From Pseudomonas saponiphila (GTDB taxonomy: Bacteria > Pseudomonadota > Gammaproteobacteria > Pseudomonadales > Pseudomonadaceae): DNA of 64,000 nucleotides. Every line of letters begins with the position of its first letter. The stretch's first letter is position 1. A model generated the notes under the pieces. It worked only from the letters and a program-made list of their open reading frames with translations. It was not told the DNA's origin and did not search any database. Positions 515 through 17,034 of this stretch are shown one piece after another. Made by a program: the position numbers and the translations under genes. The stretch lies in contig NZ_FNTJ01000001.1 of NCBI RefSeq assembly GCF_900105185.1, forward strand, positions 1 through 64,000. Direction: 5' to 3'.

Positions 515-666
515 GGCGCGGCCCTCCGAGCTGGAAAGCCGGCCTGGCCGTGCCGTTTCGTGGTTGTCCACCGAAACGGCGCGCTTCTACTAAAAGTTAT
601 GTATTTCTTGTTAGGTAAGTTAGAGGGAACGCAAACCCGCGCCGTTGTTGGCTTTCCGGCGTTTTC

Positions 667-731: not shown

Positions 732-755
732 GGCCGTCCACAGGTTCTCCCGCAG

Positions 756-1600: not shown

Positions 1601-1626
1601 GGCGAAGGCCACCCACGCGCCGACGA

Positions 1627-1941: not shown

Positions 1942-2023
1942 ACCACGCGGCCGGATAGAGGCACTCTCAAGAAAGCAAGGCTTCTTGCTAAGGGACGATT
2001 CGCACGGGTCGAGAAAGTCCCCC

Positions 2024-3136: not shown

Positions 3137-3484
3137 TCAATCGGTGATCGAACCGTTTTCCTGAGCCAGTCGAACGTATTCCGACAGCGGCCGCGTCGGC
3201 TGGAAATACCGATCTCGTATCACGGGCTGCTTGAGCGGCCCGACGATGGACGCCAGATCGGACAGCTTCACCGTCGCCAGGGCAGGCATCCCGATCCCGA
3301 GGTCGATCAGGCCGTAGGCCGTATCGCCATCGGTCGGATCGAGCGCGGCCAATAGCCAGGTCGCATGTGCGTCCGGTGTGAACAGGCGCACCACGGGCAG
3401 CGGGTCACATTCCTGGCCTGCGGCGCGGGTGAGGCCGTGGCCAGTAGGTGCACCCCGGTCTTCCTCGGTGACAAGCGTGGTCAA
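3137..3484 (-). CDS. DUF2958 domain protein
   Basis: The protein matches the DUF2958 pattern: TLVTEEDR near the N-terminus, DPLPVVRLFTPDAHATWLLAALDP, then DGDTAYGLIDLGIGMPALATVKLSDLASI, ending in YVRLAQENGSITD. This is a small conserved ICE and plasmid protein of unknown function, usually near repA and DUF736 genes. The frame is open further upstream to ATG 3574, but homology appears to begin near codon TTG 3484, which has GGAAGG upstream; about 115 residues result. TTG is inferred as the start. No disabling mutation is visible. Confidence 0.65.
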   Translation of the reverse strand: MTTLVTEEDRGAPTGHGLTRAAGQECDPLPVVRLFTPDAHATWLLAALDPTDGDTAYGLIDLGIGMPALATVKLSDLASIVGPLKQPVIRDRYFQPTRPLSEYVRLAQENGSITD

Positions 3485-3770
3485 GGCCGCGCCCCTTCCA
3501 CGACACACGCAATCGCCGAGGCGCATCTGTGCCTGCGGACGGATGCACGTATGCGCAAGCGCACGAAGCCGCAAAAGCGGAGAGGCACGAAGGCGTATTG
3601 GTGGAAGTCAGGAAAGACACGGATGCGGTTCCCTGGGTCTGAGGAAATCCGCAGATGCGGATCTCCGTAAAAGCACGGAAAAGGAAAACATCACCACCAA
3701 ATGAACACTATAGATTGTAGTCCTATAGGGCGCAATGGGCTGTCATCTTGGTTTTTTGGGGAAACCATAG
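3485..3770. promoter_or_regulatory. Divergent regulatory region of the Xre gene, with CTATAG inverted repeat
   Basis: This region separates the leftward DUF2958 gene from the rightward Xre regulator. An inverted repeat, CTATAG (3708-3713) and CTATAG (3723-3728), lies about 45 bp upstream of the Xre start in AT-richer DNA. It is a plausible autoregulatory operator or promoter for the divergent genes. The rest (3485-3700) shows no gene. Confidence 0.4.
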
Positions 3771-4064
3771 GTGGCAGCGAAGAACTCATTGGCAGCGGCG
3801 ATTCGGACGGTAAGGAAGGCGCGTGGTTTGAGCCAGGAAGCGTTCTCCAACGTGTCCAGTCGCACCTACATGAGCACGCTGGAGCGCGACCTGAAAAGCC
3901 CAACCATCCAGAAGCTGGCCGATCTGTGCGAGGTCATGGAAGTGCATCCGCTCACGCTGCTCACATTGGCTTATGCCGGTGACAGCACCCGCGAAGCTGA
4001 TGAATTGCTGGCACAGGTGCGCCAGGAACTCAGGGCGATATTGGAAGAGCCCGACACGCCTTAG
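3771..4064 (+). CDS. Xre-family transcriptional regulator
   Basis: A 97-residue HTH_3 (Cro/CI) protein: LAAAIRTVRKARGLSQEAFSNVSSRTYMSTLERDLKSPTIQKLADLCEVMEVHPLTLL spans nearly all of it. It starts with GTG at 3771 after a GGGGAA-type ribosome site. It is the only rightward gene among leftward ICE backbone genes here, with an inverted repeat just upstream, so it probably controls itself and the divergent backbone operon. Xre regulators in ICEs often govern excision and transfer, but which promoters this one controls is not shown. Confidence 0.8.
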   Translation: MAAKNSLAAAIRTVRKARGLSQEAFSNVSSRTYMSTLERDLKSPTIQKLADLCEVMEVHPLTLLTLAYAGDSTREADELLAQVRQELRAILEEPDTP

Positions 4065-4092
4065 CGCGTTGGCGTGTGGTACTGAATTGCAG

Positions 4093-4190
4093 CAAGCGGA
4101 GCGCGCAGCGCCGCAGGCGCGAAGGCGTGAGGGATTGAAGCCGGATGGCCGTGACGGCTTGCCGGCACGGGGCGAAGCCCGAAGCCCGGC
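4093..4190 (+). repeat. ICE intergenic structured element, copy 1
   Basis: The stretch starts with CAAGCGGAGCGCGCAG, then a hairpin (GCGCC-gca-GGCGC), then GAAGGCGTGAGGGATTGAAGCC and a second hairpin around GGGCGAAGCCC. Copies at 9057 and 12341 share the flanks but carry different bases in the first stem. It follows the Xre gene by about 30 bp. Confidence 0.5.
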
Positions 4191-4375
4191 GGCGCTTACA
4201 GCGCCGACACGCCACACACCGCTCGTTGACACGGATTGCGAGCCACAAGGCACGCATGCAGGCCCGCCGTGACGGGCGTATCCAGCACGCGGCAGCAGCA
4301 GAAATCCTGCGCGTGCGGTGCTGCGATCAGCAGCATCGCGCCCCGCCGCAGTGGGCGGGACGCGGTAAGCGGCTG
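4191..4375. other. Non-coding gap downstream of the DUF736 pseudogene
   Basis: No convincing gene. A GC-rich inverted repeat, CCCGCC-gcagt-GGGCGGG, around 4339-4357 could act as a terminator-like structure for the leftward DUF736 transcript, although it lacks a T tract. Confidence 0.35.
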
Positions 4376-4691
4376 TCAGGCCGCCTTCGGCTTGTTGCGC
4401 GACCAGATCAGGTCGTGCGTGCCGTCCTCGTTCTCGATCAGGCGGGCATAGACCGTCGCCGGGAACGAAGGGTCGTCGATGGATACGGACAGGTATTCCC
4501 GCCCGGCCTCGCTGGTCTTCTTCCACGCTGCGCCGACTTCGTGGCCAGCCGCTTGCAGGTGGAAGTCGGGGGCGTTCTCGGTGTCGCCCTTGTCGTTGGG
4601 AACCAGCTTGACCTTGACGTTGAGCGTCAGGGGTGCGAAGCGTGCCGGTGAAGCCGTCTTTCTCTGCGGTGAAGGTGCCGATGTTAGCCAT
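4376..4691 (-). pseudogene. DUF736 family protein with a +1 frameshift
   Basis: DUF736 proteins are about 100-residue ICE proteins of unknown function. The 5' frame begins [20 protein letters not shown] from ATG 4691. The remainder ([16 protein letters not shown] ... [30 protein letters not shown]) is in another frame. A run of four G on the plus strand at 4630-4633 would need to be three for a continuous protein. Everything else looks conserved, so the lesion is recent or is an assembly error. Confidence 0.75.
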
Positions 4692-5466
4692 GATGTTTCT
4701 CCTTTCGGGTTGAACAAGGTCGCGCCAGTGCGTCCTTGTTGTGATCCGGCCGGCGGGGGATGGGCTGGTCGCACCGCACAGCGGTCGCAACAACGTGGAG
4801 AACCTGGAAGCGAAAAGAATTTGTCCCGCGAGGAATGCGCGCAGCGCAGGGGAAATTGTTTTCGCTGCAAGGTTGCGGCCATCAAGCACAAGGCGCAGCC
4901 GCGCCACCGCCAGGATTCACAACAAGACAAGGACGCACAGGCCGCCCGCTCCCGAATGGAGACGTGGCCAACTCGGCATCCCCGCGTGACGGCTGCACCG
5001 GCTTGCGCCCTGACGCGGGCCAGGTCAATGCCCCGACGACAAGGCCAGAGCGCCCCTGCCGCAGCTCACGGCCACATACTGAGGCGTGGTGTGGAAGCTC
5101 CATAGAAGCGAGGCTGGGCGGCGTGTCGGTGAACCGTCTTTCGTGACGTACAGACAACGAACCGCCAGCGTCGGGGACGGCACGCTTTCGTGCAACCTGC
5201 CGCAGCAAGCCGGGGCGTAGCCACACCAGCCCCGCCCATTGCGGCGGGGCTCGGTCGAATCGTTGGCGGCGCGATGCGCCGCCACACTTGCTGGCTTCGT
5301 GGATTTCGCGCACGAGCGCCCTTGTGCGTGGCCCCATCGCCGCCTGTCCGAAGGCGGCGATGGGGCGTTTTGGCTTTGAGCAGTGAAACCGGGCGCGGCC
5401 ACCGCCGCGCCCGGAGTTTTCGACCACCGGCCCCAAGGCGGCACGGCTTGGGGCCGGTGCGGCTCG
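4692..5466. other. 770-bp non-coding region with strong hairpins
   Basis: Open frames here are typical GC-rich shadows with no family resemblance. The sequence holds near-perfect hairpins: GCCCCATCGCCGCC (5331-5344) with its complement at 5353-5366, followed by GTTTT, and CACCGGCCCCAAG (5425-5437) with its complement at 5447-5459. A further GC-rich hairpin lies around 5229-5252. The region may encode a structured RNA or carry terminators on both strands. Confidence 0.45.
5331..5370 (+). terminator. Strong hairpin followed by GTTTT
   Basis: A 14-bp stem (5331-5344 with 5353-5366), a loop of about 8 bases and a short T stretch fit a rightward intrinsic terminator. No rightward gene directly precedes it, so the transcript it ends, if any, would be an unannotated RNA from 4700-5330. 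Confidence 0.5.
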
Positions 5467-5676
5467 TTATTCCTTGGTTTCGATGATCCACCACACGGCG
5501 CGCGGCAAGGCGCGGCCCGTGAGGGGATGCAGATCGGTCAGGTCGGCGCGGGCCGTCCAGCCACGCGGCGGACGGTAGCCGCGCACGTCGCCGTCGCCGT
5601 GCCAGCGGCGGGCGCGCACCGTGCCGGAGGCATAGGTCGCAGCTATGCGGGGGCGGTTTGCGGGTTGGTGGGTCAT
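5467..5676 (-). CDS. Small hypothetical ICE protein
   Basis: A 69-residue basic protein (MTHQPANRPRIAATYASGTVRARRW ... LTDLHPLTGRALPRAVWWIIETKE). Start taken at ATG 5676, with GAGG eight bases upstream; ATG codons at 5685 and 5694 are also in frame. It is downstream of parB on the same strand. I do not recognise a domain; small proteins ending in a WWIIETKE-like tail are common beside parB in related elements, which is the main reason to call it real. Confidence 0.5.
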   Translation of the reverse strand: MTHQPANRPRIAATYASGTVRARRWHGDGDVRGYRPPRGWTARADLTDLHPLTGRALPRAVWWIIETKE

Positions 5677-5696
5677 GGCAGGCATCCTCAACATGA

Positions 5697-5722
5697 AGCG
5701 CCCCGGCCGGAACCGGGGCGCT
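5697..5722 (-). terminator. Hairpin downstream of parB
   Basis: AGCGCCCCGG (5697-5706) pairs perfectly with CCGGGGCGCT (5713-5722) just beyond the parB stop at 5738. There is no T tract, so it may stabilise or attenuate the transcript rather than fully terminate it before the small downstream gene. Confidence 0.5.
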
Positions 5723-5737
5723 ATCTACGGTGCGAAG

Positions 5738-7807
5738 TCACGCGGCCAAAGCCTCGGCCTGCGGCTGGTCATCCGCCACGGCGGCCACTTCTTCCTGTGC
5801 TTCGGCTTCGCCATCCGCCGGCGCGTCCTGCCCGGTCTGCTGCGGGCCTTCGGAGCGGAAGATGGCGGGCATCCAGCCGGTGCCAGCGGCCAGCCGTTCG
5901 GCTTCGCTGGCAATGTCGCCCTTCTTCAACTTCGCCAGTCGGGTGACGTGCGAGGGCGCGAACCCGCCAACGGCTTCCAGAATCGCGGCCTTCGGCACAT
6001 GCCGGAAGTAACCCTCATTGGTGGGCTGCCACCACGCGGCCATATCCAGCCCCACGGCCTGCGCCAGTTCCGCGCCGGGCTGGTGCGGCGTGGCGCGAGG
6101 CGTCACCACGTCCACCGTGGAAGCTAAGCACACGGCCAACAGCCGCACCAGTTCATCCTGTGATTTCGCCAGCAGCGCGGCGAACAGTTCGGCGCTGTCC
6201 TCCGGCAAGGTTTCGCCTGCCACCTGTTGCAGTTCGCGCAGCGCCACGGCGGCGGGTGATTCCGGCCAGTCCGGGGCCATGCCTTCCAGCCGGTCTTGCA
6301 CCGTGAGGCGCACACCCAGCGGCAGGTCGTGCCCGTAGTGCCTTTCCTGCAAGACGGTCTGCACCATGCCATGCACCACGGCGGCCAGCGCTGCTTGCGG
6401 ATGCCGTGCAACTTCGATTTGCAGCGCAGCGGTACGGTGCGCGCTCAACCGCTGCGCCAGTCGGTCAGACATGGCGGCGGTCTTGGGCTGCTCGTCGTCC
6501 TCGCCTGCGTCCTCGTTCGCGGCTTCGCCTTCGCTGCCGAAACCCTGCCGCAGCCGCTCCAGCGTGCGCAGTGCCTTGGCCTCCGCTTCGCGCAGCAGCC
6601 CGCGATGAATCGCGGCCTGCCCGTCGCGGTCGATGGTGACAATGGCACCGGCTGCGGCCTTCACGTTGGCCGCATAGTCCAGCAAGCCATCTTCCAGCGC
6701 CTGCAACTGCTCGCCCAGGCGTTCGCCTTCTTCCTGCAAGGCATCGGCCTTTTCCTCGTCCTCGTCGTCCAGCGCGGCATCCACCGCCTCGGCCAGTTCG
6801 TGCAGCTTGGTTTGCAGCTTCTCGATGCGCTGCGCGTCGCGCTTGTTCGGACTGCGGCGTTCCCTTGGCGCACGCTGGAAGGCTTGCAGATCGGCATGGG
6901 TCATGCCCGGCGTGGCATCCACCCACGCCCAGCCCTCGGCCTGCACCTTGGCGGCGATACCTGCCAGCTTGTCCTGCGCCAGCCGTTCCAGCAGTGCGGC
7001 ATCGGTCAGATACACGCCTTTGTCGCCCTCCGCGAACAGGTCGCGGCGGATGCCACCGCCTTCCTGCTCGTAGCCGTCCAGCCCGACAAAGCGCACCAGC
7101 GGATGCCGGTAGGCGTCGATTTCGCGTTCGGTCAGGCGGTCGCGCAGGTTGTGCGGGCCGCGCTGCCATGTGGGCGCATCGTAGAACGCGGCTTCCTGCG
7201 CAGCATGGTCGTCGGTGATGGCGAGGGCCATCAACTGGTCAAGGCTCACGGCCTCGGCCCGGTAGTCGGCCAGCAGGCGCGGCGACACGTTGGCGAGTTT
7301 CAGACGGCGCTGCACCACCAGCGGCGTGACGCTGAAATCCGCTGCAATGTCCTCGATGCTGCGGCCTTCGGCCACGAGCGCGGCGAACGCCTCGAACTGG
7401 TCGGCGGGGTGCATGGCTTCGCGCTGCACGTTCTCGGTGAGGCTGGCCGTGCGGGCGGTGCCATCGGCCACCAGCAGGCAAGGCACCTCCCATTCCTTGC
7501 TAATGCGGTGCTTTTTCGCCAGCAGCTTCAACGCTGCGAGGCGACGGTCACCGGCCACGACCTCGTAATGCTCGCCATCGGCGGCGGCAATCACGATGAG
7601 GTTTTGCAGCAGGCCGACACGCTGGATGCTGGCGGCGAGTTCGGGAATGGACATGCGCGGGGTCTTGCGCACGTTGCGGCCAGTGGGACGCGACACCAGC
7701 CGCGACAGCGGAACCAGAATCAGGTTCTTGGTCGGATCAGCGGCTTCCAGCGGGATAGCGGCGGCGGTGTTGATGGCGCGGGCTTCGGTTTGGGTAACGG
7801 CGTTCAT
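5738..7807 (-). CDS. parB: ParB/RepB/Spo0J-family partition protein
   Basis: A 689-residue ICE ParB. The ParB/sulfiredoxin-like N-terminal domain lies at about residues 30-130 (LVPLSRLVSRPTGRNVRK, VVAGDRRLAALKLLA, SLTENVQREAMHPADQFEAF), followed by a helix-turn-helix (IEDIAADFSVTPLVVQRRLKLANV) and a long acidic, Glu/Asp-rich central coil (about residues 330-470). Start set at ATG 7807 (MNAVTQTEARAINTAAAIPL), with AGGAG upstream; the frame is open further upstream but that part is antisense to the next gene. Much larger than chromosomal ParB (about 290 residues), as usual in these elements. No frameshift seen. Confidence 0.85.
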   Translation of the reverse strand: MNAVTQTEARAINTAAAIPLEAADPTKNLILVPLSRLVSRPTGRNVRKTPRMSIPELAASIQRVGLLQNLIVIAAADGEHYEVVAGDRRLAALKLLAKKHRISKEWEVPCLLVADGTARTASLTENVQREAMHPADQFEAFAALVAEGRSIEDIAADFSVTPLVVQRRLKLANVSPRLLADYRAEAVSLDQLMALAITDDHAAQEAAFYDAPTWQRGPHNLRDRLTEREIDAYRHPLVRFVGLDGYEQEGGGIRRDLFAEGDKGVYLTDAALLERLAQDKLAGIAAKVQAEGWAWVDATPGMTHADLQAFQRAPRERRSPNKRDAQRIEKLQTKLHELAEAVDAALDDEDEEKADALQEEGERLGEQLQALEDGLLDYAANVKAAAGAIVTIDRDGQAAIHRGLLREAEAKALRTLERLRQGFGSEGEAANEDAGEDDEQPKTAAMSDRLAQRLSAHRTAALQIEVARHPQAALAAVVHGMVQTVLQERHYGHDLPLGVRLTVQDRLEGMAPDWPESPAAVALRELQQVAGETLPEDSAELFAALLAKSQDELVRLLAVCLASTVDVVTPRATPHQPGAELAQAVGLDMAAWWQPTNEGYFRHVPKAAILEAVGGFAPSHVTRLAKLKKGDIASEAERLAAGTGWMPAIFRSEGPQQTGQDAPADGEAEAQEEVAAVADDQPQAEALAA

Positions 7808-7887
7808 GGTGATAACTCCTATCGGTTCAGGGATGCAGCAGCGAAGAAAGCGACAAGGGCTGCTGCCTGCCCCTGCCGCGTGGGGAT

Positions 7888-8715
7888 TCAGGCTTTCAAC
7901 TGGCGCATGCCATCGGCCAGCAGCCAGAGGGCGCGATTTAGTCGGATGTTTTGGTCGATGCCCTGCACCGGGCGGGTTTGCTGTCGGCGCCCGTTGGCGC
8001 TGCGGCCACGCAGCCCGCCTTGGGTCAGGTTTTCTTGGGTGCGGTTGAACACGCTCCACAGGTCGGGGCGGCGGTCGTCGAAGCGGCGCGGCATCAGGAT
8101 TTGCGATTCCGTGATGGGCGCGGGCTTGTCGGGGTCGTCGTACTTGAGGGCGAGCGCGGCGCGGGCGAACACTTCGGATTCGCCATCGTCCAAGGTGATG
8201 CCGCGCATGGCATCGCGCGATTCCTTCACCCGATCGAAACCGCTCAAGACTTCGTAAGCCCCCTCAATGACCAGACCGGCCACGTCGCCTTTATGGGGCA
8301 CTCGCACATCGGCCACGGTGTTGCCGCAGACAAGGCCATTGCTGCACACGAACCGGAACATTCCGGCCAGCATCTGATAGCTGCTGGTGCCGTCGTGCGA
8401 GTTCAGCAGCACGATTTCGTTGGCCTCCGCGCCGTTGATCTGGCTGGCATGGCGCAAGCGAATCATGTGTTTGGTGTGCTCGCGCTTGCCTTCGTCGCGC
8501 ACGCGGGTTTGCGTCACCATGAAAGGCTGGAAGCCTTCTTTGCGAAGCTCGGTCAGCACGGCGGCGGTGGGGATATAGGCGTACCGCTGCGAACGGCTCT
8601 CGTGCGGGGCATCCGCGAAGATGGACGGGGCCACGCGGTGAATCTGGTCGTCGGACAGCGGGTAATCGCTGCGCAGCGAGGGGGAGCGGAAAGCGAAACG
8701 GGATGCGAGTTGCAT
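7888..8715 (-). CDS. DUF932 domain protein
   Basis: A 275-residue protein of the DUF932 family, conserved in ICEs and plasmids and of unknown biochemical role. Visible family segments are YAYIPTAAVLTELRKEGFQPFMVTQTRVRD, HTKHMIRLRH, EIVLLNSHDGTSSYQMLAGMFRFVCSNGLVCG and SRDAMRGITL. Start at ATG 8715 (MQLASRFAF) with AGGAGA upstream. It lies 80 bp upstream of parB on the same strand and is probably co-transcribed with it. Confidence 0.8.
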   Translation of the reverse strand: MQLASRFAFRSPSLRSDYPLSDDQIHRVAPSIFADAPHESRSQRYAYIPTAAVLTELRKEGFQPFMVTQTRVRDEGKREHTKHMIRLRHASQINGAEANEIVLLNSHDGTSSYQMLAGMFRFVCSNGLVCGNTVADVRVPHKGDVAGLVIEGAYEVLSGFDRVKESRDAMRGITLDDGESEVFARAALALKYDDPDKPAPITESQILMPRRFDDRRPDLWSVFNRTQENLTQGGLRGRSANGRRQQTRPVQGIDQNIRLNRALWLLADGMRQLKA

Positions 8716-9056
8716 GGTCTTTCTCCTGACAAAAGAGGTTTGCTGTTCACACCGCACACCGGATTTCTAGATTCGGAGCCCAGCCTTTCGGCTGTTTGGT
8801 GCGGTCGGCACGAGGAACCCGGTTGGCCCTGTTGCCACCGTCTTTCCTGAGTTCATCGCCCGCGCCCAAAGGAGCGCGCGGACGGGGGCCGTCAAGGAGC
8901 CAAGCGCAGGGTTGGTGCGGCCCGCAGGCGCAGCCGAGGACACGGCCCTGCGCGCCTTGACGGCACACGGTCGCGGGCTACGGTCGCGGGTAAGGTGATG
9001 AAGTCAGGGGAGACGGCTGGACAAGGCAACGGCCATCCCTTTGTGCTGACCGCACG
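8716..9056. other. Non-coding region with a long inverted repeat (8888-8964)
   Basis: No gene is supported. GCCGTCAAGG followed by GCGCAGGG (8888-8911) is complementary to CCCTGCGC and CCTTGACGGC (8946-8964), forming a large interrupted stem with a GC-rich loop. The DUF932-parB promoter must lie in the left part, but I could not pick out a convincing -35/-10 pair. Confidence 0.45.
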
Positions 9057-9190
9057 CAAGCGAAGCGCGCAGGCCCGAAGCTGGAAGCCGGGCCGTAGGC
9101 GTCAGCGATGCGGAAGGCTGGCGAAGCCAGTCCCGCCAGGGATGAGCGACTAGCGAACCTGGAGCAGCGCGATCCGCGAAGCGGAGACGC
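9057..9190 (+). repeat. ICE intergenic structured element, copy 2
   Basis: Begins CAAGCGAAGCGCGCAG, then the perfect hairpin GGCCCG-aagctggaag-CCGGGCC, then GTAGGCGTCAGCGATGCGGAAG and a second hairpin GCTGGCGAAGCCAG. It sits directly upstream of the RloC-like nuclease gene and ends near the GC-to-AT composition change. Confidence 0.5.
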
Positions 9191-9260
9191 AAGAGGACTC
9201 TTCGTTTACCATTTGTTTCGCAAGCAAATGATGGGAAAGCAAGAACACGGAGATATAGAG

Positions 9261-11564
9261 ATGATTGTCTGCATCAACCGCCTCAAACAGTTCGGAATCT
9301 TCAGCGACTTCAATGGAACGAAGATCCAAAAGTTCGGCCGGTACAACCTGGTCTATGGTTGGAATGGAACAGGCAAGTCAACGTTATCGAATCTATTCTC
9401 TTGCTTTGAGCTTCGCTCGATGGTTCCCCGCTTCAGCACGGGCCAATTTTCAGTAGTTCTGGAGGATGGCTCAACGATCACGGAATCCACACTCCACTCA
9501 TCCCAATTGAATATTCATGTTTTCAATCAACGCTTCGTGCATGAGAACATTGATTGGGACAAATCCGTAAAGAGCATCCTTCTTATTGCGAAAGAGAAGA
9601 TTGATGACTTGCAGAAGCTGGAGAAGCTGAAGAGCGAGCTTCAGTCGAAAAAGAAGGCTCACGACGACAAGCAAAGCGATATCAAGAAGCAGCGTGAGGC
9701 ATTAGAGAAGTTCCTGACCAATGCTGCCAAGAAAATGAAGCTTGGACTTCAGGCGATTGATACGAGCGACAGTTATTACTTGAATTACGACCGCCGCAAG
9801 CTCTTCAACTTCATACAGAATAACGGCGAGACAATTATCAAGGCGGAGTCGGTTCTTCCAGATGAGAGGGTTATCGACCTTACGAATGCCGCCAAGCCAG
9901 ATCAGCTTCCAAGCATTGCTTTCGCCTCAACGGCCATTGAGCCGGACTACTTTAAGAAAGCGGCGGGCCGCATCAGAGATTTGATTGGGACTACGGCGGT
10001 CAATCAAGCAATCCAGCGGCTGACCGATAACCCGGAAATCCGCGAATGGGTTCAAGCAGGCTTGGAAATCCATAAAAACCACGACTCGCAATCCTGCGAG
10101 TTCTGCGGCTCTCCGTTCGCCCAGCTTCGTGCCGAGGCGCTTGCTGCCCACTTCAGCAAGGAGTTCACGGAGTTTCAGAGCCGACTTCAGAACGCGGCGA
10201 CATGGATTGAATCTCAAGGCGCTCCAGCTAATCAGTTTCCCGCATCGACCGAGTTTTATAAAGAACTATCGGCCGAGGCAGAGAAGCTTCAAAAGGACTA
10301 CGCAACTGCTGCTGAAAAGATCGACCAGCAAATCGACGCCTGGCGGGAAGCCCTGAAGGCCAAGATCACAGACCCTGGGAAGACAGACATTCAGATCTCG
10401 GATGTGGTTGAAGACGATGTCACCAATTTCAATGACATCCTGAAATCGATTGTTGCTCTCGTTGGAAAGCACAACAATAAGACTTCAAATTTCAAATCTG
10501 AGACCTCAAAAAGCAAGGTGGCACTGGAGCTTCACTTTGCTGCGGCTGAGGTGCAAGAGTTTGACTATGCTGGAAGTGAGAAGAAGTGCAATGACCTTGA
10601 GTCAGAAGCAAAGAACGACCATAAGGAAATTGAAAAAATTAGTCTAGAGGTCGGAGCCATAGAAGCGGCGCTCTCGAATGAAACGGTCGGGGCAAAGGAG
10701 TTCAATGACATCCTGCATCGCTTCATTGGCCGCTCTGAGCTTTGCCTGAACTTCAATCAGAAGAAGAAAGGCTATGAGATCATCAGAAACGGGGTTGGTG
10801 AGCACGATGGGAATTTGAGCGAAGGTGAGAAAACTGCGATTGCATTTGTCTATTTCATCACGAAGCTCAAAGAAAATGGAAATAACATCAAGGATACGAT
10901 CGTCGTCGTTGACGATCCGGTCTCAAGCTTTGATTCTAATCACTTGTTTCACGCCTACTCGTTTTTGAGAACGCAATGCACTGAAGCCAAGCAACTTTTT
11001 GTGCTGACTCACAACTTCACTTACTTTAAGCTAGTGAGAGACTGGTTCACTGGCACCAATAGGAATCGAGTCAAAAAAGGCAACGCCGAGAATTGCTTCT
11101 TTTATCGCCTGGATGCGCCACCTGGCTCCCCTCGTCACTCCCTACTTGTGGATGCCGACGACTCACTCAAGAACTACGGTTCCGAGTACCACTATATCTT
11201 CAAGAAGCTCTACGAATATAGGGCGCACACAACACTCAATCGAGATGAGGCGTTCTTGACCGCCAACCTCGCCCGAAAGCTTGTTGAATCGTTTTTCACC
11301 TTCAAATATCCAAGGCGTCGAAGCGACATTAGTCAATTGATGGAGGCTGGCCTAAAAGATTGCACCATCACGACACCAGAGCTTAAAGAAAAAATCTACC
11401 GCTTTATCAATAAGTATTCACATAGCGACGTTATTGAGATAACAGAGGAATCCGCAGAAAACTTGGCAGGCGAAAGCCACAGCGTCATCGGGAACATCTT
11501 CCAGTGGCTGGAAGAGGTGGACAAGAAACATTACGACGAGATGATTCAGGTTGCGACGGCCTGA
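9261..11564 (+). CDS. RloC/PrrC-like ATPase-coupled anticodon nuclease (AAA_13 family)
   Basis: A 767-residue ABC/Rad50-type ATPase with a C-terminal RNase-like domain. Walker A is GWNGTGKST (residues 33-41); two coiled-coil stretches flank a CxxC (C279, C282) resembling a zinc hook; the signature LSEGEK is near residue 520; Walker B VVVDDPVSSFD is near 551; LFVLTHN is the H-loop. The C-terminal part carries R672-x3-E676 and RFINKYSH (R714, H721), matching the Arg-Glu-His triad of PrrC-type anticodon nucleases and a HEPN Rx6H motif. Start at ATG 9261 (GGAG upstream); the frame continues upstream but reads through the structured repeat. It is clearly more AT-rich than its neighbours, so a later cargo. 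Likely anti-phage tRNase; the substrate is not known from sequence. Confidence 0.75.
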   Translation: MIVCINRLKQFGIFSDFNGTKIQKFGRYNLVYGWNGTGKSTLSNLFSCFELRSMVPRFSTGQFSVVLEDGSTITESTLHSSQLNIHVFNQRFVHENIDWDKSVKSILLIAKEKIDDLQKLEKLKSELQSKKKAHDDKQSDIKKQREALEKFLTNAAKKMKLGLQAIDTSDSYYLNYDRRKLFNFIQNNGETIIKAESVLPDERVIDLTNAAKPDQLPSIAFASTAIEPDYFKKAAGRIRDLIGTTAVNQAIQRLTDNPEIREWVQAGLEIHKNHDSQSCEFCGSPFAQLRAEALAAHFSKEFTEFQSRLQNAATWIESQGAPANQFPASTEFYKELSAEAEKLQKDYATAAEKIDQQIDAWREALKAKITDPGKTDIQISDVVEDDVTNFNDILKSIVALVGKHNNKTSNFKSETSKSKVALELHFAAAEVQEFDYAGSEKKCNDLESEAKNDHKEIEKISLEVGAIEAALSNETVGAKEFNDILHRFIGRSELCLNFNQKKKGYEIIRNGVGEHDGNLSEGEKTAIAFVYFITKLKENGNNIKDTIVVVDDPVSSFDSNHLFHAYSFLRTQCTEAKQLFVLTHNFTYFKLVRDWFTGTNRNRVKKGNAENCFFYRLDAPPGSPRHSLLVDADDSLKNYGSEYHYIFKKLYEYRAHTTLNRDEAFLTANLARKLVESFFTFKYPRRRSDISQLMEAGLKDCTITTPELKEKIYRFINKYSHSDVIEITEESAENLAGESHSVIGNIFQWLEEVDKKHYDEMIQVATA

Positions 11565-11605
11565 GCATCAGGCCGCGAGGGCCATAGCTATGCCACCAGG
11601 CGCAG

Positions 11606-11628
11606 CAAAAAGGGGCCGAAGCCCCTTG
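11606..11628 (-). terminator. Intrinsic terminator of radC
   Basis: AAGGGGC and GCCCCTT form a tight stem with a CGAA-type loop, and on the minus strand the stem is followed by TTTTTGC. It sits just past the radC stop at 11631 and may also end the rightward nuclease transcript. Confidence 0.75.
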
Positions 11629-11630
11629 GG

Positions 11631-12140
11631 CTAGATCAGCCCATGCTCGGCGAACGATGCCGTTTCGTTGCCCGCAACGATGATGTGATCGAGCACGCGC
11701 ACGTCCACCAGACCCAACGCTTCCTTGAGCCGCTGGGTCAGCGCCCGGTCAGCCGCGCTCGGCTCGGGGTTTCCGCTCGGATGGTTGTGCGAAACGACGA
11801 CCGCCGCCGCATTGAGCCGCAGCGCCTCCTTGACCACTTCGCGCGGATACACCGACGCACCGTCAATAGTGCCGTGGAACATCTCCCTGTATTCGATCAG
11901 ACGATGGCGCGTATCCATGAACAGCACTACGAACACCTCATGCTCGAAGCTGGCCAACTTTGTACGCAAGTATTCCTTGACCGCCGCCGGCGAAGTGAAC
12001 TCTGCTCCGCGCCGCATTTTCCGGTCAATGACCTGGCGCGCAGCTTCCAGAATGTCGTCGGCCGATGCCGGTAGATAGCGCCCGTGCGCGTCGCGCACCA
12101 GCAGACAGGAATCGAACGAGGGAAAGGACAGTTGCGACAT
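11631..12140 (-). CDS. radC: RadC-family JAB/MPN domain protein
   Basis: A 169-residue RadC-type protein. The JAMM metal-binding pattern is present: Glu in YREMFHGTIDGA, then VVVSHNHPSGNPEPSAADRALTQ (HxHxxG followed by Asp). Start at ATG 12140 with GGAG upstream. RadC-like proteins are a constant feature of mobile elements of this family; despite the name, a role in DNA repair is not established. The HTH-bearing N-terminal part of chromosomal RadC is missing, as usual for the ICE form. Confidence 0.85.
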   Translation of the reverse strand: MSQLSFPSFDSCLLVRDAHGRYLPASADDILEAARQVIDRKMRRGAEFTSPAAVKEYLRTKLASFEHEVFVVLFMDTRHRLIEYREMFHGTIDGASVYPREVVKEALRLNAAAVVVSHNHPSGNPEPSAADRALTQRLKEALGLVDVRVLDHIIVAGNETASFAEHGLI

Positions 12141-12340
12141 GATCGTGCTCCGGTTGCTCGGGCGGAATTGCCCGGAACCGGCGGCAGCACTGCGCAGCGC
12201 AAGCAGTCAGGGGTCGCAGACGGCCGCCAGGACGCAAGCGCGCATGGCGCGCGCCGCCCTTGACGGCGAGAACGCCGTGATACGGTGAAGGGAACAGCAA
12301 GACCGCCCACACCCGCCCACTGCACAGAGTCGATTTTTGG
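12141..12340. other. radC upstream region, no gene seen
   Basis: GC-rich non-coding DNA between radC and structured element copy 3. It contains CCGCCCTTGACGGCG (around 12256-12270) and a GGCGCGCGCC palindrome. The CCTTGACGGC word is shared with the 8946-8964 arm, suggesting a common element or processing structure. Confidence 0.35.
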
Positions 12341-12470
12341 CAAGCGGAGCGCGCAGGCCCGGATCAACGAGCCGGGACGGAGGCGTCAGTGATGGAAGCC
12401 CGACAGGGGCGAGACTCGCGCAGCGAAGCTCGATGCGCAGCACGACAGCGCGACGGCGGCACGCCGGGAC
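12341..12470 (+). repeat. ICE intergenic structured element, copy 3
   Basis: Begins CAAGCGGAGCGCGCAG, then a hairpin CCCGG-atcaacgag-CCGGG, then GGAGGCGTCAGTGATGGAAGCC and a second hairpin around CCCGACAGGGG. Further downstream GACTCGCGCAGCGAAGCTCG forms another imperfect stem. It lies about 20 bp beyond the stop of the leftward nuclease gene. Confidence 0.5.
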
Positions 12471-12491
12471 GCCCGACTGCTTGGGACAGGA

Positions 12492-13556
12492 CTACTCGTT
12501 GTCCGTCTTGCGCTGCTCGATTTGCAACTGCGCCCGTTGCGTTGCCTGTTGCAGCCGCTCCACCAGCACGCCCCTCGGCGGCAAGGCGGTCAGATACTCG
12601 GCAACGTGGATGCCGGACTTGTCCAGCTCCAGCAATTCGATCTGCTCGCGCTTCTTGCCGGTGCAAAGGATGATCCCGAGCGGCGAGGCTTCCTCCGGCT
12701 CCCGTTCGTGCTTGTCTAGCCACCGAAGGTAAAGCTCCATCTGCCCTTTGTAGGCCGCCTTGAAGTCACCTACCTTCAACTCCACCGCAACCAGCCGCCG
12801 CAGCTTGCGGTTGTAGAACAGAAGGTCAAGGTGGAAATCCTCGTCGTCGATCGGAATGCGCTTCTGCCGGGCGACGAATGAGAAGCCCGCGCCCAGCTCC
12901 AGCAGGAAGGACTCCATTTCACGGATGATCGCCGCTTCCAAGTCGCCTTCCTGCCAAGTGTCCCGCAGGCCCAGGAAGTCGAGGATGTACGGGTCGCGCA
13001 TGACCAGGGCCGGCGACATGCGCTGCGCATCGCGCAGGGTCGCCAACTCCTGCGCTATGGTTTCTTCCGGCTTTTGGGAAAGCGCCGTGCGCTCGTACAG
13101 CATCGAGTCGATACGCTCGCGCAGCGTCCGCACGCTCCAGCGTTGGGTGCTGGCCATCTGTGCGTAGTAGTCCCGCTGGAGCGGGTCTTTCAGCGGCATC
13201 AGGGCGATGAAGTGCGTCCAGCTCAATTCTCGTATCAGTGATACGAGAATTCGCTCGTCGGGGAAGGTGGCGGCGAACTGCACCATGCGGCGCAAGTTCT
13301 GCTCTGCAAAGCTGCTGCCGTACTCCTCCACCAACTGCGCAGCCAAGGTGGGCAGAACTTCCTTGCCGTAGGCGCCCCGGCGCCTGTCCAAGACCTGCGT
13401 GTGGATGCGTTGGCCGATGCGCCAGTAGAGCATCGTAAGCTCGCTATTCACCGTCGAGGCGGCGCGCAAGCGCGCCGCCTCGATCAGTGCCCGAATGTCG
13501 CCCAGCAGCGCCGCGGGCGCTGCGAGCGATGCTGCTGATGGCCGGCGCCCGTTCAT
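12492..13556 (-). CDS. PDDEXK nuclease domain protein (DUF1016/YhcG family)
   Basis: A 354-residue DUF1016 protein. The N-terminal DUF1016_N helical domain (residues about 15-170: LYWRIGQRIHTQVL, YGKEVLPTLAAQLVEEYG, FSEQNL-type SFAEQNLRRMVQFAATFPD, LSWTHFIALMPL) is followed by a PDDEXK nuclease fold (DFHLDLLFYNRKLRRLVAVELKVGDFKAAYKGQMELYLRWLD) with the D...ExK catalytic signature. Start at ATG 13556 overlaps the integrase stop (ATGA), so the two are translationally coupled. The role is unknown; proposed roles include recombination processing or defence. The frame stays open upstream but that part is antisense-like shadow of the integrase. Confidence 0.85.
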   Translation of the reverse strand: MNGRRPSAASLAAPAALLGDIRALIEAARLRAASTVNSELTMLYWRIGQRIHTQVLDRRRGAYGKEVLPTLAAQLVEEYGSSFAEQNLRRMVQFAATFPDERILVSLIRELSWTHFIALMPLKDPLQRDYYAQMASTQRWSVRTLRERIDSMLYERTALSQKPEETIAQELATLRDAQRMSPALVMRDPYILDFLGLRDTWQEGDLEAAIIREMESFLLELGAGFSFVARQKRIPIDDEDFHLDLLFYNRKLRRLVAVELKVGDFKAAYKGQMELYLRWLDKHEREPEEASPLGIILCTGKKREQIELLELDKSGIHVAEYLTALPPRGVLVERLQQATQRAQLQIEQRKTDNE

Positions 13557-14752
13557 GCCACCGCCTCCGCAAGCTGCCGCGCGCCCGTGATGGCTTGGCG
13601 GCGGCTGGCCACCAGCTCGGCCGCCTCGCGCACCGGCTTGTCCTCGGTGTGGACGTAGTGCATGAACATCGCCACGGTCTTGTGGCCCGTCAGCTTCATT
13701 CCCACTTTGGTCGGCACACCGGAATTGGCAATGTCGGTGGTCGAGCGATGACGGATGCCGTGCGTGCCTACGTGCGGCACGCTGGCGGCCTTGAGCGTCC
13801 GGCACCAGCCGCCATAGTGCTCGCCAAAGGTCAGGTGCTTGGCCGGGTCGTTCGGCGACGGCAGGACGTAAGGGCAGCCTTCCAGACGCGGCGCCGTCGA
13901 AAGCAGCCGATAGGCTTCCTCGCTCATGGGCTTGGAAATGCCGCCAACCTTGCTGTCGGGCCACACCACGCGCCGGTTCTCGAAGTCCAGCCAGCTCCAT
14001 TCGAGCGGGCAGATTTCGGAGCGCCGCGCCGCAAACTCGAATTGCAGCCGGATCGCCAACGGGATGACGTAGTTCTCCAGCCCCTCCGCCTCCAGTTTCT
14101 CCAACTGGCGGAAGATCCGCACCATTTCCTCGTCCACGATGAGCCGGGTTTCCTTGCCCGGCGGGTACATCGGGACGTGGCGGCACGGATTCGTGCCGTC
14201 CGGGCGGAAGCCCCAGACTTCGGCCAAGTTGAACATCTTGCGCAGCACGCCGAAGGTCTTGTTGGCCTCGGTCGGCTTGTAGGCCAGCTTTTCCATGAGC
14301 CCCGCAATGTCGGGCCGCTTCACGTCATGCACCTTCTTGCGGCCCAGCAGCGGGATGATGTTGCGGTCGATGACGCCCTGGTAGCCGTCCTGCGTGCTGA
14401 CCTTGTTGCGCTTCTTGGAGTAGTCCTCCATGAACTTTTTGCACAACTCGGCCATCGTGGGCGCCTTGCGCGCCTCGGCCTTGGCACCGCCGGGATCACC
14501 ACCCCGGCGAACCTCGGCCAGCCAGTCCTGCGCTTTGACCCGCGCCTGTTCGACGGTTAGCTCCCCGTAGAGTCCCAGCGAGGGCTTGCGGGGCTGGCCA
14601 GAGTTCGTGCGGTACTGGAGCATGAACACCCGGCGTCCCGTCGAGGTAATCTTGCAAAGGAAGCCGGGCACGACGGTATCCCGTAGTTCGATGTCCTTCG
14701 CCTGGGGTTGCGCCGACTCTACGGCGGTCTTGGTGAGCTTGATCTTTGCCAT
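13553..14752 (-). CDS. int: Site-specific tyrosine recombinase (ICE integrase)
   Basis: A 399-residue P4/Tn4371-type integrase that mediates integration and excision of the element. The N-terminal DUF4102 arm-binding domain (LTKTAVESAQPQAKDIELRDTVVPGF) is followed by a SAM-like core-binding domain and the catalytic domain with R243 (AARRSEI), H331-x2-R334 (HGIRHRS), H357 (GHKT) and Y366 (MHYVH), so all catalytic residues are present. Start at ATG 14752 with AAGGAG upstream. It is the outermost ICE gene on this side and runs inward, immediately next to the proposed end of the element. Confidence 0.92.
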   Translation of the reverse strand: MAKIKLTKTAVESAQPQAKDIELRDTVVPGFLCKITSTGRRVFMLQYRTNSGQPRKPSLGLYGELTVEQARVKAQDWLAEVRRGGDPGGAKAEARKAPTMAELCKKFMEDYSKKRNKVSTQDGYQGVIDRNIIPLLGRKKVHDVKRPDIAGLMEKLAYKPTEANKTFGVLRKMFNLAEVWGFRPDGTNPCRHVPMYPPGKETRLIVDEEMVRIFRQLEKLEAEGLENYVIPLAIRLQFEFAARRSEICPLEWSWLDFENRRVVWPDSKVGGISKPMSEEAYRLLSTAPRLEGCPYVLPSPNDPAKHLTFGEHYGGWCRTLKAASVPHVGTHGIRHRSTTDIANSGVPTKVGMKLTGHKTVAMFMHYVHTEDKPVREAAELVASRRQAITGARQLAEAVA

Positions 14753-14927
14753 GATGACTCCTTGGAACGACCCGGATTCCAGGAGCCAGATAGGAGCGGC
14801 GCGAGGGAGAACCGGGTCAAGTTTCAGAAAGCACCGGCATATGATGGAAGCGCGTAAGCTATTGATAAACCTGCTGTATCGGGCTACGTCGCAGTCCAGC
14901 GAACTACCGGGCTGGAGTCATCGTGAA

Positions 14928-14935
14928 ACAAAAAA
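14928..14935 (-). other. Candidate ICE attachment site (right end)
   Basis: On the minus strand this reads TTTTTTGT. I recall that Tn4371-family elements insert at 8-bp sites of the form TTTTTYRT, which this fits. It lies between the integrase gene (start 14752) and the core EVE gene (stop 14987), inside what looks like the T tract of that gene's terminator. The partner copy would be beyond the left edge. Confidence 0.45.
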
Positions 14936-14986
14936 GCCCTCACTGCCGCCGCAGCCCGGGTCGGGCCCCGGCGACGAGCAGGATGC

Positions 14987-15436
14987 TCAGAGCAGGGCGA
15001 GGACGGCAGCCCATTGTTCGGCGGTGACTGGCATCACCGACAAGCGGCTGCCCTTTTGCACCAGGGGCATTTCGGCGAGCGCGGTCTGCTGCTTGAGGAA
15101 GTCCAGGCGCAGGACCTTGTCGAAAGTTCGCACGTGGGCCACGTCGATTGCGCTCCAGGCATTTTTTTCGGCGCTGGCCTTGGGGTCGAAGTAGTGACTG
15201 TCCGGCTCCAGGGCGGTCGGGTCCGGGTAGGCCGCCTTGATGATCCGGCCGATACCGGCGATGCCGGGCTCCGGGCAGCTGGAGTGATAGAAAAAGAACT
15301 CGTCACCGACGGCCATGGTGCGCAGAAAATTGCGCGCCTGATAGTTGCGTACGCCATCCCAACGGGCTTGGCCAAGCTGCTGCAGGCCGAGGATCGAGAG
15401 TTCGTCCGGCTCGGATTTCATCAGCCAATAGGCCAT
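14987..15436 (-). CDS. EVE domain-containing protein
   Basis: A 149-residue EVE (PUA-like) protein: MAYWLMKSEPDELSI at the N-terminus, WDGVRNYQARNFLRTMAVGDEFFFYHSS, then GIGRIIKAAYPDPTAL. EVE domains bind modified bases in RNA or DNA. It is the first core-chromosome gene to the right of the ICE; the element lies about 50 bp beyond its stop, possibly within its terminator. Full length for the family. Confidence 0.85.
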   Translation of the reverse strand: MAYWLMKSEPDELSILGLQQLGQARWDGVRNYQARNFLRTMAVGDEFFFYHSSCPEPGIAGIGRIIKAAYPDPTALEPDSHYFDPKASAEKNAWSAIDVAHVRTFDKVLRLDFLKQQTALAEMPLVQKGSRLSVMPVTAEQWAAVLALL

Positions 15437-15633
15437 GTTTCTTACCCTCCAAAGGGTGATTGGGCAGGTCGTCGGAGGATTTTATGACAAACCGACGGTC
15501 GGTTGACGCCAGCGTTTGCGTGTCGGTTCACGTTATCGCAAAATGCCGGGATTTTAAGCTTGACGCTGCTGCACGGCCTGTTATGGAAACCGTTGCTGTC
15601 ATCGTGTGTGACTTGCCCGAGGGGGGGCAATCG

Positions 15634-15780
15634 ATGAAACGCCAACCGGATTTACTATGGATTTTGGTTATTTTGTTCGGTTTGGGCGTTGTAACTACCG
15701 GTTATGCGCAAAGCTTGTGGGCCAACAAGACCGATGCTCCGATCGAGATCGCCCAACAGCCGCAACCCTTCAAGCGCTGA
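15634..15780 (+). CDS. Small single-pass membrane protein
   Basis: A 48-residue protein (MKRQPDLLWILVILFGLGVVTTGYAQSLW ... QPFKR) with one hydrophobic segment at residues 8-23. Start at ATG 15634; upstream in-frame sequence has no such character and a G-rich ribosome site (GAGGGGGGG) is adjacent. It sits between the EVE gene and the folate cyclo-ligase gene, as in other pseudomonads as I recall. No function known. Confidence 0.6.
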   Translation: MKRQPDLLWILVILFGLGVVTTGYAQSLWANKTDAPIEIAQQPQPFKR

Positions 15781-15813
15781 ACCTGCCCTGGCGTCTCTGA
15801 GCAAGCACAACGT

Positions 15814-16419
15814 CTATCGGGCGCAGTACCATCCCTGATCCGTCACGCTGCCTTGCAGCGGCACATCCCAGCTGGCCTGATCCAGTCTCGCGACTTTCTG
15901 GCACTCATGAGCCAGGCCCAGCAGTGTCGGCTTGCGCCAGCTCTGTCGGCGCGCCAGGTACGCCAGGCTGCGGTCGTAGAAGCCTCCGCCCATTCCCAGG
16001 CGACCTCCCTCTTCATCGAATCCCACCAGGGGCAGGAGCACCAGATCCAGTGCCCAGACCTTGCGCTGGCGTGCGGCGTTGATCCGTGGTTCGAGGATGC
16101 GAAAGCGGTTGAGACGCAGTTTTTCTCCTGGGCGGATGCGCTGGAACACCATCTTGGTTCGTGGCCAGGCACTGAGCACAGGCAAGTAGGTGGCCTTGCC
16201 CCGGCGTTGGGCGGCGCGCAGCAGCAGGCGCGGATCGATTTCGCCATCGGTGGGCAAATACAGGGACAGGTGTCGGGCCCGACGAAACACCGGGTTCTGC
16301 GCCAGTTGGCGGTACAGGTCATGGGCGGCCTGGCGTTGCTGGGCTGGCGTGAGGGCGCGACGGGCTTTACGCAGCATGCGTCGAAGTTGCGGGCGGGAAA
16401 GCGGCGCAGGTTCGGTCAT
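15814..16419 (-). CDS. ygfA: 5-formyltetrahydrofolate cyclo-ligase
   Basis: Converts 5-formyl-THF to 5,10-methenyl-THF with ATP. The 201-residue protein shows the family pattern: RPQLRRMLRKARRALTPAQQRQAA, LSLYLPTDGEIDPRLLL, and LVLLPLVGFDEEGGRLGMGGGFYDRSLA, the conserved GGGFYDR segment near residue 150. Start at ATG 16419 (MTEPAPLS); the open frame extends upstream without conservation. It lies directly downstream of ssrS on the same strand, the usual ssrS-ygfA arrangement. Confidence 0.92.
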   Translation of the reverse strand: MTEPAPLSRPQLRRMLRKARRALTPAQQRQAAHDLYRQLAQNPVFRRARHLSLYLPTDGEIDPRLLLRAAQRRGKATYLPVLSAWPRTKMVFQRIRPGEKLRLNRFRILEPRINAARQRKVWALDLVLLPLVGFDEEGGRLGMGGGFYDRSLAYLARRQSWRKPTLLGLAHECQKVARLDQASWDVPLQGSVTDQGWYCAR

Positions 16420-16506
16420 TGAGGAGGCTATGGAGAGTCGGACATGGCAGAACAGCCTACCCGGAAAAACCAATGCCAGCATGGATAACTGGCATTGGCT
16501 GACAAT

Positions 16507-16686
16507 TCAGGCTCCCCGGGCGAACCGCTGTCGACTTAGCCCTTGAACCCGAAAGTTCAAGGCGGAAGATGCAGCAGGCTTTAAGGCTTTCCGTCTAGCG
16601 GACATGCACACCAGCCCAACGTGCAACTTCCAGGGTAGTGCGAATCGGCTCAGGGACATCGCCAACTGGCAAGCACCCCAGGGAGT
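16507..16686 (-). ncRNA. ssrS: 6S RNA
   Basis: The gap between zapA and ygfA, on the minus strand, reads like Pseudomonas 6S RNA: GCCAGTTGGCGATGTCCCTG in the 5' half, GTGCATGTCCGCTAGACGGA in the middle, TTGAACTTTCGGGTTCAAGG as a hairpin, and AGCGGTTCGCCCGGGGAGCC at the 3' end. A -10 TATACT lies at 16693-16698, putting the start near 16686 and the length near 180 nt. 6S RNA sequesters sigma-70 RNA polymerase in stationary phase. Ends are estimates. Confidence 0.9.
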
Positions 16687-16710
16687 GGCGGGAGTATACC
16701 GCAACCGCTG

Positions 16711-17034
16711 TCAGGAATCAGCTTTGCTTGCGTCCGAATCGGTGGCCAGGACCAGGTCAACACGATCCAGCAGATCCCGTACCTGTTCGCGAGTGGTGGC
16801 GCTGGCCTGCACGTCCGGACGCTCCTGGCGATGCAGCAGGTCGTGGGTGATGTTCAGCGCGGCCATGACCGCGATGCGATCGGCGCCGATGACTTTGCCG
16901 CTGCTGCGGATCTCGCGCATCTTGCCGTCCAGGTAACGGGCAGCGCTCACCAGATTGCTGCGCTCTTCCTGGGGGCAGATGATCGAATATTCTTTGTCGA
17001 GGATCTGCACGGTAACGCTATTGCTTGAACTCAT
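16711..17034 (-). CDS. zapA: Cell division protein ZapA
   Basis: A 107-residue FtsZ-associated protein that bundles Z-ring filaments. The N-terminal head (SNSVTVQILDKEYSIICPQEERSNLVSAARYLDGKMREIRSSG) is followed by the coiled-coil tail (GADRIAVMAALNITHDLLHRQ), both typical. Its ATG at 17034 overlaps the upstream coiled-coil gene's stop (ATGA). The ssrS promoter lies just past its stop codon. Confidence 0.92.
   Translation of the reverse strand: MSSSNSVTVQILDKEYSIICPQEERSNLVSAARYLDGKMREIRSSGKVIGADRIAVMAALNITHDLLHRQERPDVQASATTREQVRDLLDRVDLVLATDSDASKADS

What the first reader, a model, noticed from the sequence alone, without database searches (positions are those of the whole stretch)
9261..11564. 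AT-rich RloC/PrrC-like anticodon nuclease as ICE cargo
The 767-residue protein combines an ABC/Rad50 ATPase core, a CxxC pair (C279, C282) in the coiled coil and a C-terminal segment with R672-x3-E676 and R714-x6-H721. That is the layout of RloC-type tRNases and also fits a HEPN active site. It stands alone with no restriction-modification genes next to it, and its lower GC content against a GC-rich ICE backbone suggests late acquisition. It is probably an abortive-infection or tRNA-targeting defence gene, perhaps controlled by the structured repeat immediately upstream.
Basis: partly seen in the sequence, partly recalled or inferred. Interest (0 to 1): 0.75.

Follow-up and report, generated by a model that had tools for sequence, protein, structure and literature searches.

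The report
RloC-type tRNA-cutting defence gene on ICE
A mobile DNA element carries a gene that looks like a known kind of bacterial self-poisoning defence, a tRNA-cutting enzyme switched on by broken DNA, and beside it lies a folded DNA signal that may switch on other genes of the element when it enters a new cell.

The parts
9261..11564 (+). rloC-type gene, 767 aa, ABC ATPase with CXXC hook and C-terminal HEPN-like nuclease domain
   Evidence: AAA_13 3.3e-209; PDC-S06 3.1e-174, PrrC 3.6e-9
9357..9383 (+). Walker A, residues 33-41
   Evidence: invariant in 103 of 103 near-full-length close relatives
10095..10106 (+). CXXC hook, C279-C282
   Evidence: both Cys in 344 of 344 and in 64 of 64
10818..10832 (+). 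ABC signature SEGEK, residues 520-524
10899..10934 (+). Walker B and D-loop, residues 547-558
11130..11561 (+). C-terminal HEPN-like domain, residues 624-767
11274..11276 (+). R672 of the triad
   Evidence: 344 of 344 and 64 of 64
11286..11288 (+). E676 of the triad
   Evidence: 344 of 344; 62 of 64, Asp in 2
11421..11423 (+). H721 of the triad, Ser before it
   Evidence: 342 of 344 and 64 of 64
9211..9229 (+). palindrome ATTTGTTTCGCAAGCAAAT before rloC, possible operator or promoter part
   Evidence: kept with few changes in most ICE copies, diverged in L010; one place in the window, 0.07 matches expected
8870..8990 (+). covarying structured element, candidate single-strand promoter of the divergent DUF932-parB genes
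8957..8984 (+). TTGACG-16-TACGGT hexamers in and at the foot of the hairpin
   Evidence: pattern TTGAYN-N14-19-TACNGT in 34 of 39 distinct copies, spacing 16 in each of the 34
7888..8715 (-). DUF932 gene of the ICE
   Evidence: PF06067 3.1e-56
5738..7807 (-). ParB-like gene of the ICE
   Evidence: PF02195 6.2e-7
11631..12140 (-). RadC-like JAB gene
   Evidence: PF04002 2.4e-47
12492..13556 (-). YhcG/DUF1016 PDDEXK gene
   Evidence: PF17761, PF06250
13553..14752 (-). tyrosine integrase of the ICE
   Evidence: PF00589 4.2e-16
14928..14935 (-). TTTTTTGT, right end of the ICE
   Evidence: read; identity with most near-identical copies at other sites stops at 14935-14944 (L002 at 14776); the same 8 bases flank ICETn43716385 (PMC6123621, passages)

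Best explanation
The gene is an RloC-family anticodon nuclease carried in the variable, defence-rich region of a Tn4371-family ICE. Shown here: family motifs, CXXC hook, Rad50-type head, HEPN-like C-terminus (modest strength), ICE location, strong purifying selection. Inferred from studied RloC proteins: the Rad50-like head and zinc hook hold the nuclease silent; DNA ends (phage attack on host DNA, other damage) trigger activation; R672/E676/H721 then cut tRNA at the anticodon and excise the wobble nucleotide; translation stops and infection aborts. The AT-rich composition may help to keep basal expression low.
Confidence: 0.8

Rival explanations
1. An ABC-HEPN ribonuclease of the RloC family whose target is not the anticodon wobble position (another tRNA site, mRNA or rRNA).
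For: HEPN domains cut many RNAs (PMC3710099, passages); the substrate is not predictable from the motifs; relatives diverge to about 20% identity.
Against: The two characterised RloC proteins in the passages read are anticodon nucleases.
Confidence: 0.13
2. Same nuclease, but its main role is conflict between mobile elements (exclusion or policing of incoming plasmids or ICEs) rather than phage defence.
For: Carried by conjugative elements: 87 of 88 plasmid records with a >=99% copy are predicted conjugative; some genomes hold several DUF932 loci of this kind and this genome holds two copies of the ICE.
Against: Nothing here separates phage from plasmid triggers; other occupants of the region match anti-phage families.
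Confidence: 0.25
3. A Rad50/SbcC-like repair or structural ATPase without nuclease activity.
For: Head and coiled coil match Rad50/SMC.
Against: R672, E676 and H721 are among the only five positions beyond 600 kept at 95% or more in the diverse set (N669, R672, E676, S720, H721), outside the ATPase.
Confidence: 0.03

Closest known systems
RloC anticodon nuclease (Geobacillus kaustophilus, Acinetobacter baylyi; PMC2610378, PMC3874168, passages)
   Same: ABC ATPase, CXXC hook, Arg-X3-Glu-X44-His with Ser before His, no R-M gene annotated beside it
   Different: 767 aa against 826 aa for the A. baylyi protein; carried on a Tn4371-family ICE; activity and tRNA target unknown
PrrC
   Same: Related ATPase and nuclease region (PADLOC PrrC 3.6e-9 over 517-751)
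   Different: PrrC has no zinc hook and is linked to a type I R-M system (PMC2610378); neither holds here
PADLOC PDC-S06 candidate defence family
   Same: Full-length match 3.1e-174
   Different: PDC-S06 is a label for candidates; the library attaches no mechanism
RloC-bearing defence ICE of P. aeruginosa DFU58 (PMC13231603, section 19)
   Same: RloC on an ICE with integrase and T4SS genes
   Different: That ICE also carries type IIG R-M and AbiE; whether it is a Tn4371-family ICE was not compared
Frpo/ssi single-strand promoters (PMC11541004, PMC7736820, passages), for the upstream element
   Same: Hairpin with -35/-10-like hexamers before genes transcribed from the folding strand, several copies in some plasmids
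   Different: No sequence comparison with known Frpo was made; found in Tn4371 ICEs and beta/alphaproteobacterial plasmids; the four alphaproteobacterial copies lack the hexamers; ssDNA transcription not tested

Membership tests
RloC | ABC ATPase motifs (Walker A, signature, Walker B/D-loop, switch His) | tested here: met
RloC | CXXC motif inserted in the ATPase domain | tested here: met
   C279-C282, 344 of 344 and 64 of 64
RloC | CXXC at the tip of a coiled coil (zinc hook) | tested here: inconclusive
   long helices 111-166 and 334-471 in the model, hook between short helices at pLDDT 66-68
RloC | C-terminal Arg-X3-Glu-X36-52-His, often Ser-His | tested here: met
   R672, E676, X44, S720-H721
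RloC | C-terminal domain of the HEPN fold | tested here: inconclusive
RloC | Usually no linked R-M system | tested here: met
   annotated neighbours in L025, Pfam of seven window neighbours
RloC | Wobble-nucleotide excision from tRNA, activation by DNA breaks | not testable with these tools
   needs biochemistry
PrrC | Linked type I R-M system | tested here: not met
PrrC | ATPase domain without a CXXC hook insert | tested here: not met
   CXXC present
Tn4371-family ICE | int, parB, repA, parA and relaxase genes, TTTTTTGT-type ends | tested here: met
   99.9% identical copy L025 annotated; RepA, ParB, Int in window; right end at 14928-14935. The far end and the trb genes of the window's own ICE were not looked at
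Frpo-type single-strand promoter (element 8870-8990) | Foldable hairpin carrying -35/-10-like hexamers before a gene transcribed from the folding strand | tested here: met
   hexamers in 34 of 39 copies
Frpo-type single-strand promoter (element 8870-8990) | Position in the leading region, folding strand = T-strand | tested here: inconclusive
   gene orientation fits, oriT of the family is between traF and traI (PMC11448139), direction of transfer not shown
Frpo-type single-strand promoter (element 8870-8990) | Sequence similarity to known Frpo/ssi | not tested
   no known Frpo sequence was fetched
Frpo-type single-strand promoter (element 8870-8990) | Transcription by host RNA polymerase from ssDNA | not testable with these tools
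   needs in vitro transcription

The most novel reading that the evidence does not exclude
The structured repeat at 8870-8990 is a new family of single-stranded-DNA promoters (Frpo-like) shared by Tn4371-family ICEs and unrelated beta- and alphaproteobacterial plasmids, and it works as a strand switch. Folded on the incoming T-strand it starts DUF932-parB transcription. Once the DNA is duplex, its TTGACG-16-TACGGT hexamers face the other way, into the region that holds rloC, Lamassu, Thoeris or Shedu genes. Establishment genes come first and the suicidal defence gene later, so a tRNase triggered by DNA ends is not made while the element enters. I put the first half alone (Frpo-like promoter of DUF932-parB) at about 0.5; the probability given is for the whole statement.
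Probability: 0.13. Interest if true: 0.85.

Novelty: new member of a known kind. Interest (0 to 1): 0.48.

Why it matters
The gene adds a well-conserved RloC to a broad-host-range ICE that is found nearly identical on 88 plasmid records from eight genera, so a predicted translation-stopping defence travels with clinically important plasmids. It corrects two inferences: low GC here does not mean recent arrival, and the R-x6-H match is not the family's active site. The neighbouring element, if confirmed, would extend single-strand promoters to Tn4371-family ICEs and to plasmids of beta- and alphaproteobacteria, and would make testable how an element orders establishment genes and toxic cargo during entry.

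Tried and rejected
R714-x6-H721 as HEPN active site: rejected at family level. Late acquisition: rejected. Phage origin: tblastn against phages gave 4 records, all <60% identity; 100% copies in two IMG/VR contigs (L065, L066) were not pursued and may be ICE DNA binned as virus. Known Rfam RNA for the upstream element: only matches below threshold. Tandem repeats at 8700-11700: none. Foldseek against viral structures with the C-terminal model: nothing with E <= 0.001. PrrC/RloC in PDB by sequence: none; none appeared among the rows listed by structure. Papers: the listings (held library only; listings seen, not the texts) showed none on rloC in a Tn4371-family ICE, but PMC13231603 reports RloC on a P. 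aeruginosa ICE (section 19 read). The listings showed none on an Frpo promoter in a Tn4371-family or Pseudomonas ICE.

In the loci that hold rloC, ParB, DUF932, RadC, YhcG and Int showed no IS split, though DUF932 in L011 and ParB in L021 are frameshifted and some loci lack a neighbour. I did not treat this as proof of toxicity: AT-rich targets may attract insertions, and of the 60 of 88 plasmid rows shown only one is split.

Against the structured element: the automatic consensus fold found only 8 pairs at -7.63 kcal/mol with a covariation term of -0.53; the larger structure counted was drawn by me. One of its five measures (further pair types) was reached by 10 of 500 shuffles. The window's lowest-energy DNA fold keeps the outer stem but pairs the inner part differently, and the apical GCA mini-hairpin is not in it. 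The outer stem of the alphaproteobacterial copies is misaligned in A5.

Rows dropped: L001-L006 (near-identical) and L017, L018, L021, L023 (split or frameshifted) were left out; L009 and L019 are nearly the same element. In one search, 344 of 361 proteins (length 700-830) were aligned, the window's own included. In some searches, 20 of 99 listed ORFs, from 12 of 17 rloC-less loci, were scanned. One search kept copies with E <= 1e-4, so three weaker copies are not counted. In one search the covariation count mixed reverse-complement matches and was discarded; replace it.

Full report
Observation. The reading frame 9261-11564 (+) is open and gives 767 residues. GC is 48% in a 63-65% neighbourhood. 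The start at 9261 agrees with relatives, which begin at the same ATG or GTG.

Family. Pfam AAA_13 covers residues 10-748 at 3.3e-209. PADLOC's candidate family PDC-S06 covers 1-764 at 3.1e-174, and its PrrC model matches 517-751 at 3.6e-9. The paper that defined RloC (PMC2610378; passages seen) names an ABC ATPase with a coiled-coil CXXC zinc hook and a C-terminal Arg-X3-Glu-X36-52-His, Ser often before His; mutating any triad residue of the G. kaustophilus protein abolished activity and toxicity. Here the spacing is X44 and S720 precedes H721. In 344 aligned sequences from three searches (the window's own included), C279, C282, R672 and E676 are invariant and H721 is kept in 342; R714 is Lys in 229 and Arg in 114. 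Among the 112 kept at under 80% mutual identity all five are invariant. In 63 relatives from IMG/VR contigs plus the query (some identical; median identity 20%), C279, C282, R672 and H721 are kept in 64 of 64 and E676 in 62; R714 is Arg in 23. Only 17 of 767 positions are invariant there; beyond residue 600 the only ones kept at 95% or more are N669, R672, E676, S720 and H721. So the triad, not R714-x6-H721, is the conserved active site.

Context. The window neighbours are RepA, ParB-like, DUF932, RadC-like, YhcG and a tyrosine integrase. A copy on a P. aeruginosa plasmid is 99.9% identical over window 1-14935 and is annotated with relaxase, S26 peptidase, ParA and RepA. The right end, TTTTTTGT on the minus strand at 14928-14935, equals the flanks of ICETn43716385 (PMC6123621, passages). 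This is a Tn4371-family ICE; its far end lies outside the window. A second copy, 99.88-100% identical over window 1-14935, lies about 3.64 Mb away on the same contig with an insertion in rloC. The stretch after int is known to vary between Tn4371-like elements (PMC2789088, passages).

Region. Of 398 genomes of the host's family, 46 have a DUF932 match at E <= 1e-90 and 7 an rloC match at E <= 1e-100 (two of these at 47-48% identity); rloC lies beside DUF932 in 5 of them by the listed coordinates. Of 20 elements fetched, 3 have rloC (one intact, two split) and 17 hold other genes beyond DUF932, up to int or, where no int was seen, to the end of the stretch. In 12 of the 17, scanned with 20 proteins, 6 gave a PADLOC match at 1e-20 or better: ThsB, HerA (a general helicase type), LmuA/LmuB twice, Ppl (a partial match), and a different PDC-S06 lying between RadC and int; 6 gave none at that level. 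An annotated plasmid relative has a Shedu gene there.

Age. In seven divergent ICE copies (L008-L011, L013, L019, L020; L009 and L019 nearly the same) rloC dS from the window is 0.68-0.94, while neighbours range from 0.29 to 1.16. rloC omega is 0.036-0.059, against 0.099-0.705 for the neighbours. rloC GC is 43-48% in all 14 loci whose remaining sequence is 60-70%. Low GC is therefore a lasting property of this rloC lineage, not a sign of late arrival; the differing base composition may bias the dS comparison. PMC2610378 notes rare codons in RloC genes and predicts low expression.

Spread and prior reports. In the plasmid collection 88 records hold the gene at >=99% identity over at least 80%, from eight genera, 87 predicted conjugative; the first-listed copy, on a P. 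aeruginosa plasmid, is split by ISPa33. RloC on a P. aeruginosa ICE is already reported (PMC13231603, section 19 read). PDC-S06 was predicted in 38 P. aeruginosa strains, 74.4% of them phage resistant (one passage of PMC10855318), which is correlation only.

Mechanism. Inferred from PMC2610378 and PMC3874168 (passages): the Rad50-like head and zinc hook keep the nuclease off; DNA ends activate it; it cuts tRNA at the anticodon and translation stops. None of these steps was shown here for this protein.

The structured repeat. Window 8870-8990 folds as ssDNA better on the + strand (-42.8 kcal/mol, z -3.95, 0 of 200 shuffles) than on the - strand (-32.3, z -1.59, 14 of 200). Its core recurs in plasmids of Burkholderia, Pandoraea, Paracoccus, Phaeobacter and others: 185 records match, 60 were shown, and in rows H243-H271 no annotated gene lies under the match, though a few of these records are hardly annotated. 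On 29 sequences (28 distinct) a structure drawn by me has 93.1% of cells paired (shuffles 81.6%), 12 of 20 pairs with changes on both sides (0 of 500 shuffles), and at most 42.9% paired when slid. The automatic consensus was smaller: 8 pairs, 7 with a kept change on both sides, covariation term -0.53. A TTGAYN-16-TACNGT pair is present in 34 of 39 distinct copies, always with spacing 16; the pattern occurs twice in window 1-17000 on both strands, the copy itself included. The four alphaproteobacterial copies and one Pandoraea copy lack the strict pattern. All 39 have an ORF of at least 60 codons starting within 400 nt on the complementary strand, a weak criterion in GC-rich DNA; 29 of the 39 distances are 100-161 nt by an automatic rule that sometimes picks wrong starts. 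In two plasmids with annotation, Paraburkholderia dioscoreae (3 copies in the 50 kb fetched) and B. multivorans ATCC 17616 (7 copies), each of the 10 copies precedes an annotated gene on the complementary strand, 135-270 nt away and 135-155 nt in 7; one of these genes is ParB-like (positions compared by eye). The oriT of Tn4371-family ICEs lies between traF and traI (PMC11448139, passages), so DUF932-parB would enter with the T-strand as template if transfer runs toward int; that direction is inferred. Frpo promoters work in this way in leading regions (PMC11541004, PMC7736820; passages). I read the element as an Frpo-like promoter of DUF932-parB (about 0.5). On duplex DNA its hexamers would point toward rloC, which is the basis of the bold case; published Frpo promoters are described as recognised only in single strands, which counts against a duplex role. 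That the GCA loop closed by C-G is of the stable d(C-GNA-G) type is recalled, not from a call, and the loop is not in the lowest-energy fold of the window copy.

A second small feature, the palindrome ATTTGTTTCGCAAGCAAAT at 9211-9229, lies 31 nt before the start, is kept with few changes in most ICE-borne copies, and occurs at one place in the window. It is a candidate operator or promoter part of rloC itself.

Verdict. The finding is real and the RloC reading is well supported; the gene is a new member of a known kind. The secondary claims (R714-H721 site, late acquisition) fail. The repeat beside it is the more novel lead.

Noticed in passing
window 8870-8990 (+): Covarying hairpin with TTGAYN-16-TACNGT hexamers (34 of 39 copies) before DUF932-parB, shared with beta- and alphaproteobacterial plasmids; candidate new Frpo-like single-strand promoter family, no Rfam match at threshold.
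   Followed up: partly
L151 40096-47723, L152 32074-47996: Copies of the same element precede successive operons in a Paraburkholderia plasmid and in Burkholderia multivorans ATCC 17616.
   Followed up: partly
G000:C1 about 3639200-3655700 (L029, L030): Second near-identical ICE copy in the same genome; its rloC is split by an insertion whose transposase resembles IS1380 (family name recalled; a plasmid copy of this gene is annotated as split by ISPa33, IS1380-like).
   Followed up: partly
L017, L018, L058: Three further rloC copies split by insertions at different places; the insert in L058 was not identified.
   Followed up: partly
L024 (OW967598.1): The same ICE region lies on an IncL/M,IncP-typed Klebsiella plasmid that also carries blaOXA-48 (annotation).
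   Followed up: no
window 9211-9229: Conserved palindrome just before rloC, possible operator.
   Followed up: partly
window 16509-16687 (-) and 61992-62171 (-): 6S RNA and Pseudomonas sRNA P1 (Rfam), consistent with a Pseudomonas chromosome.
   Followed up: no
window 12492-13556 (-): YhcG/DUF1016 PDDEXK gene next to the integrase recurs in many of these ICEs; role unknown.
   Followed up: no
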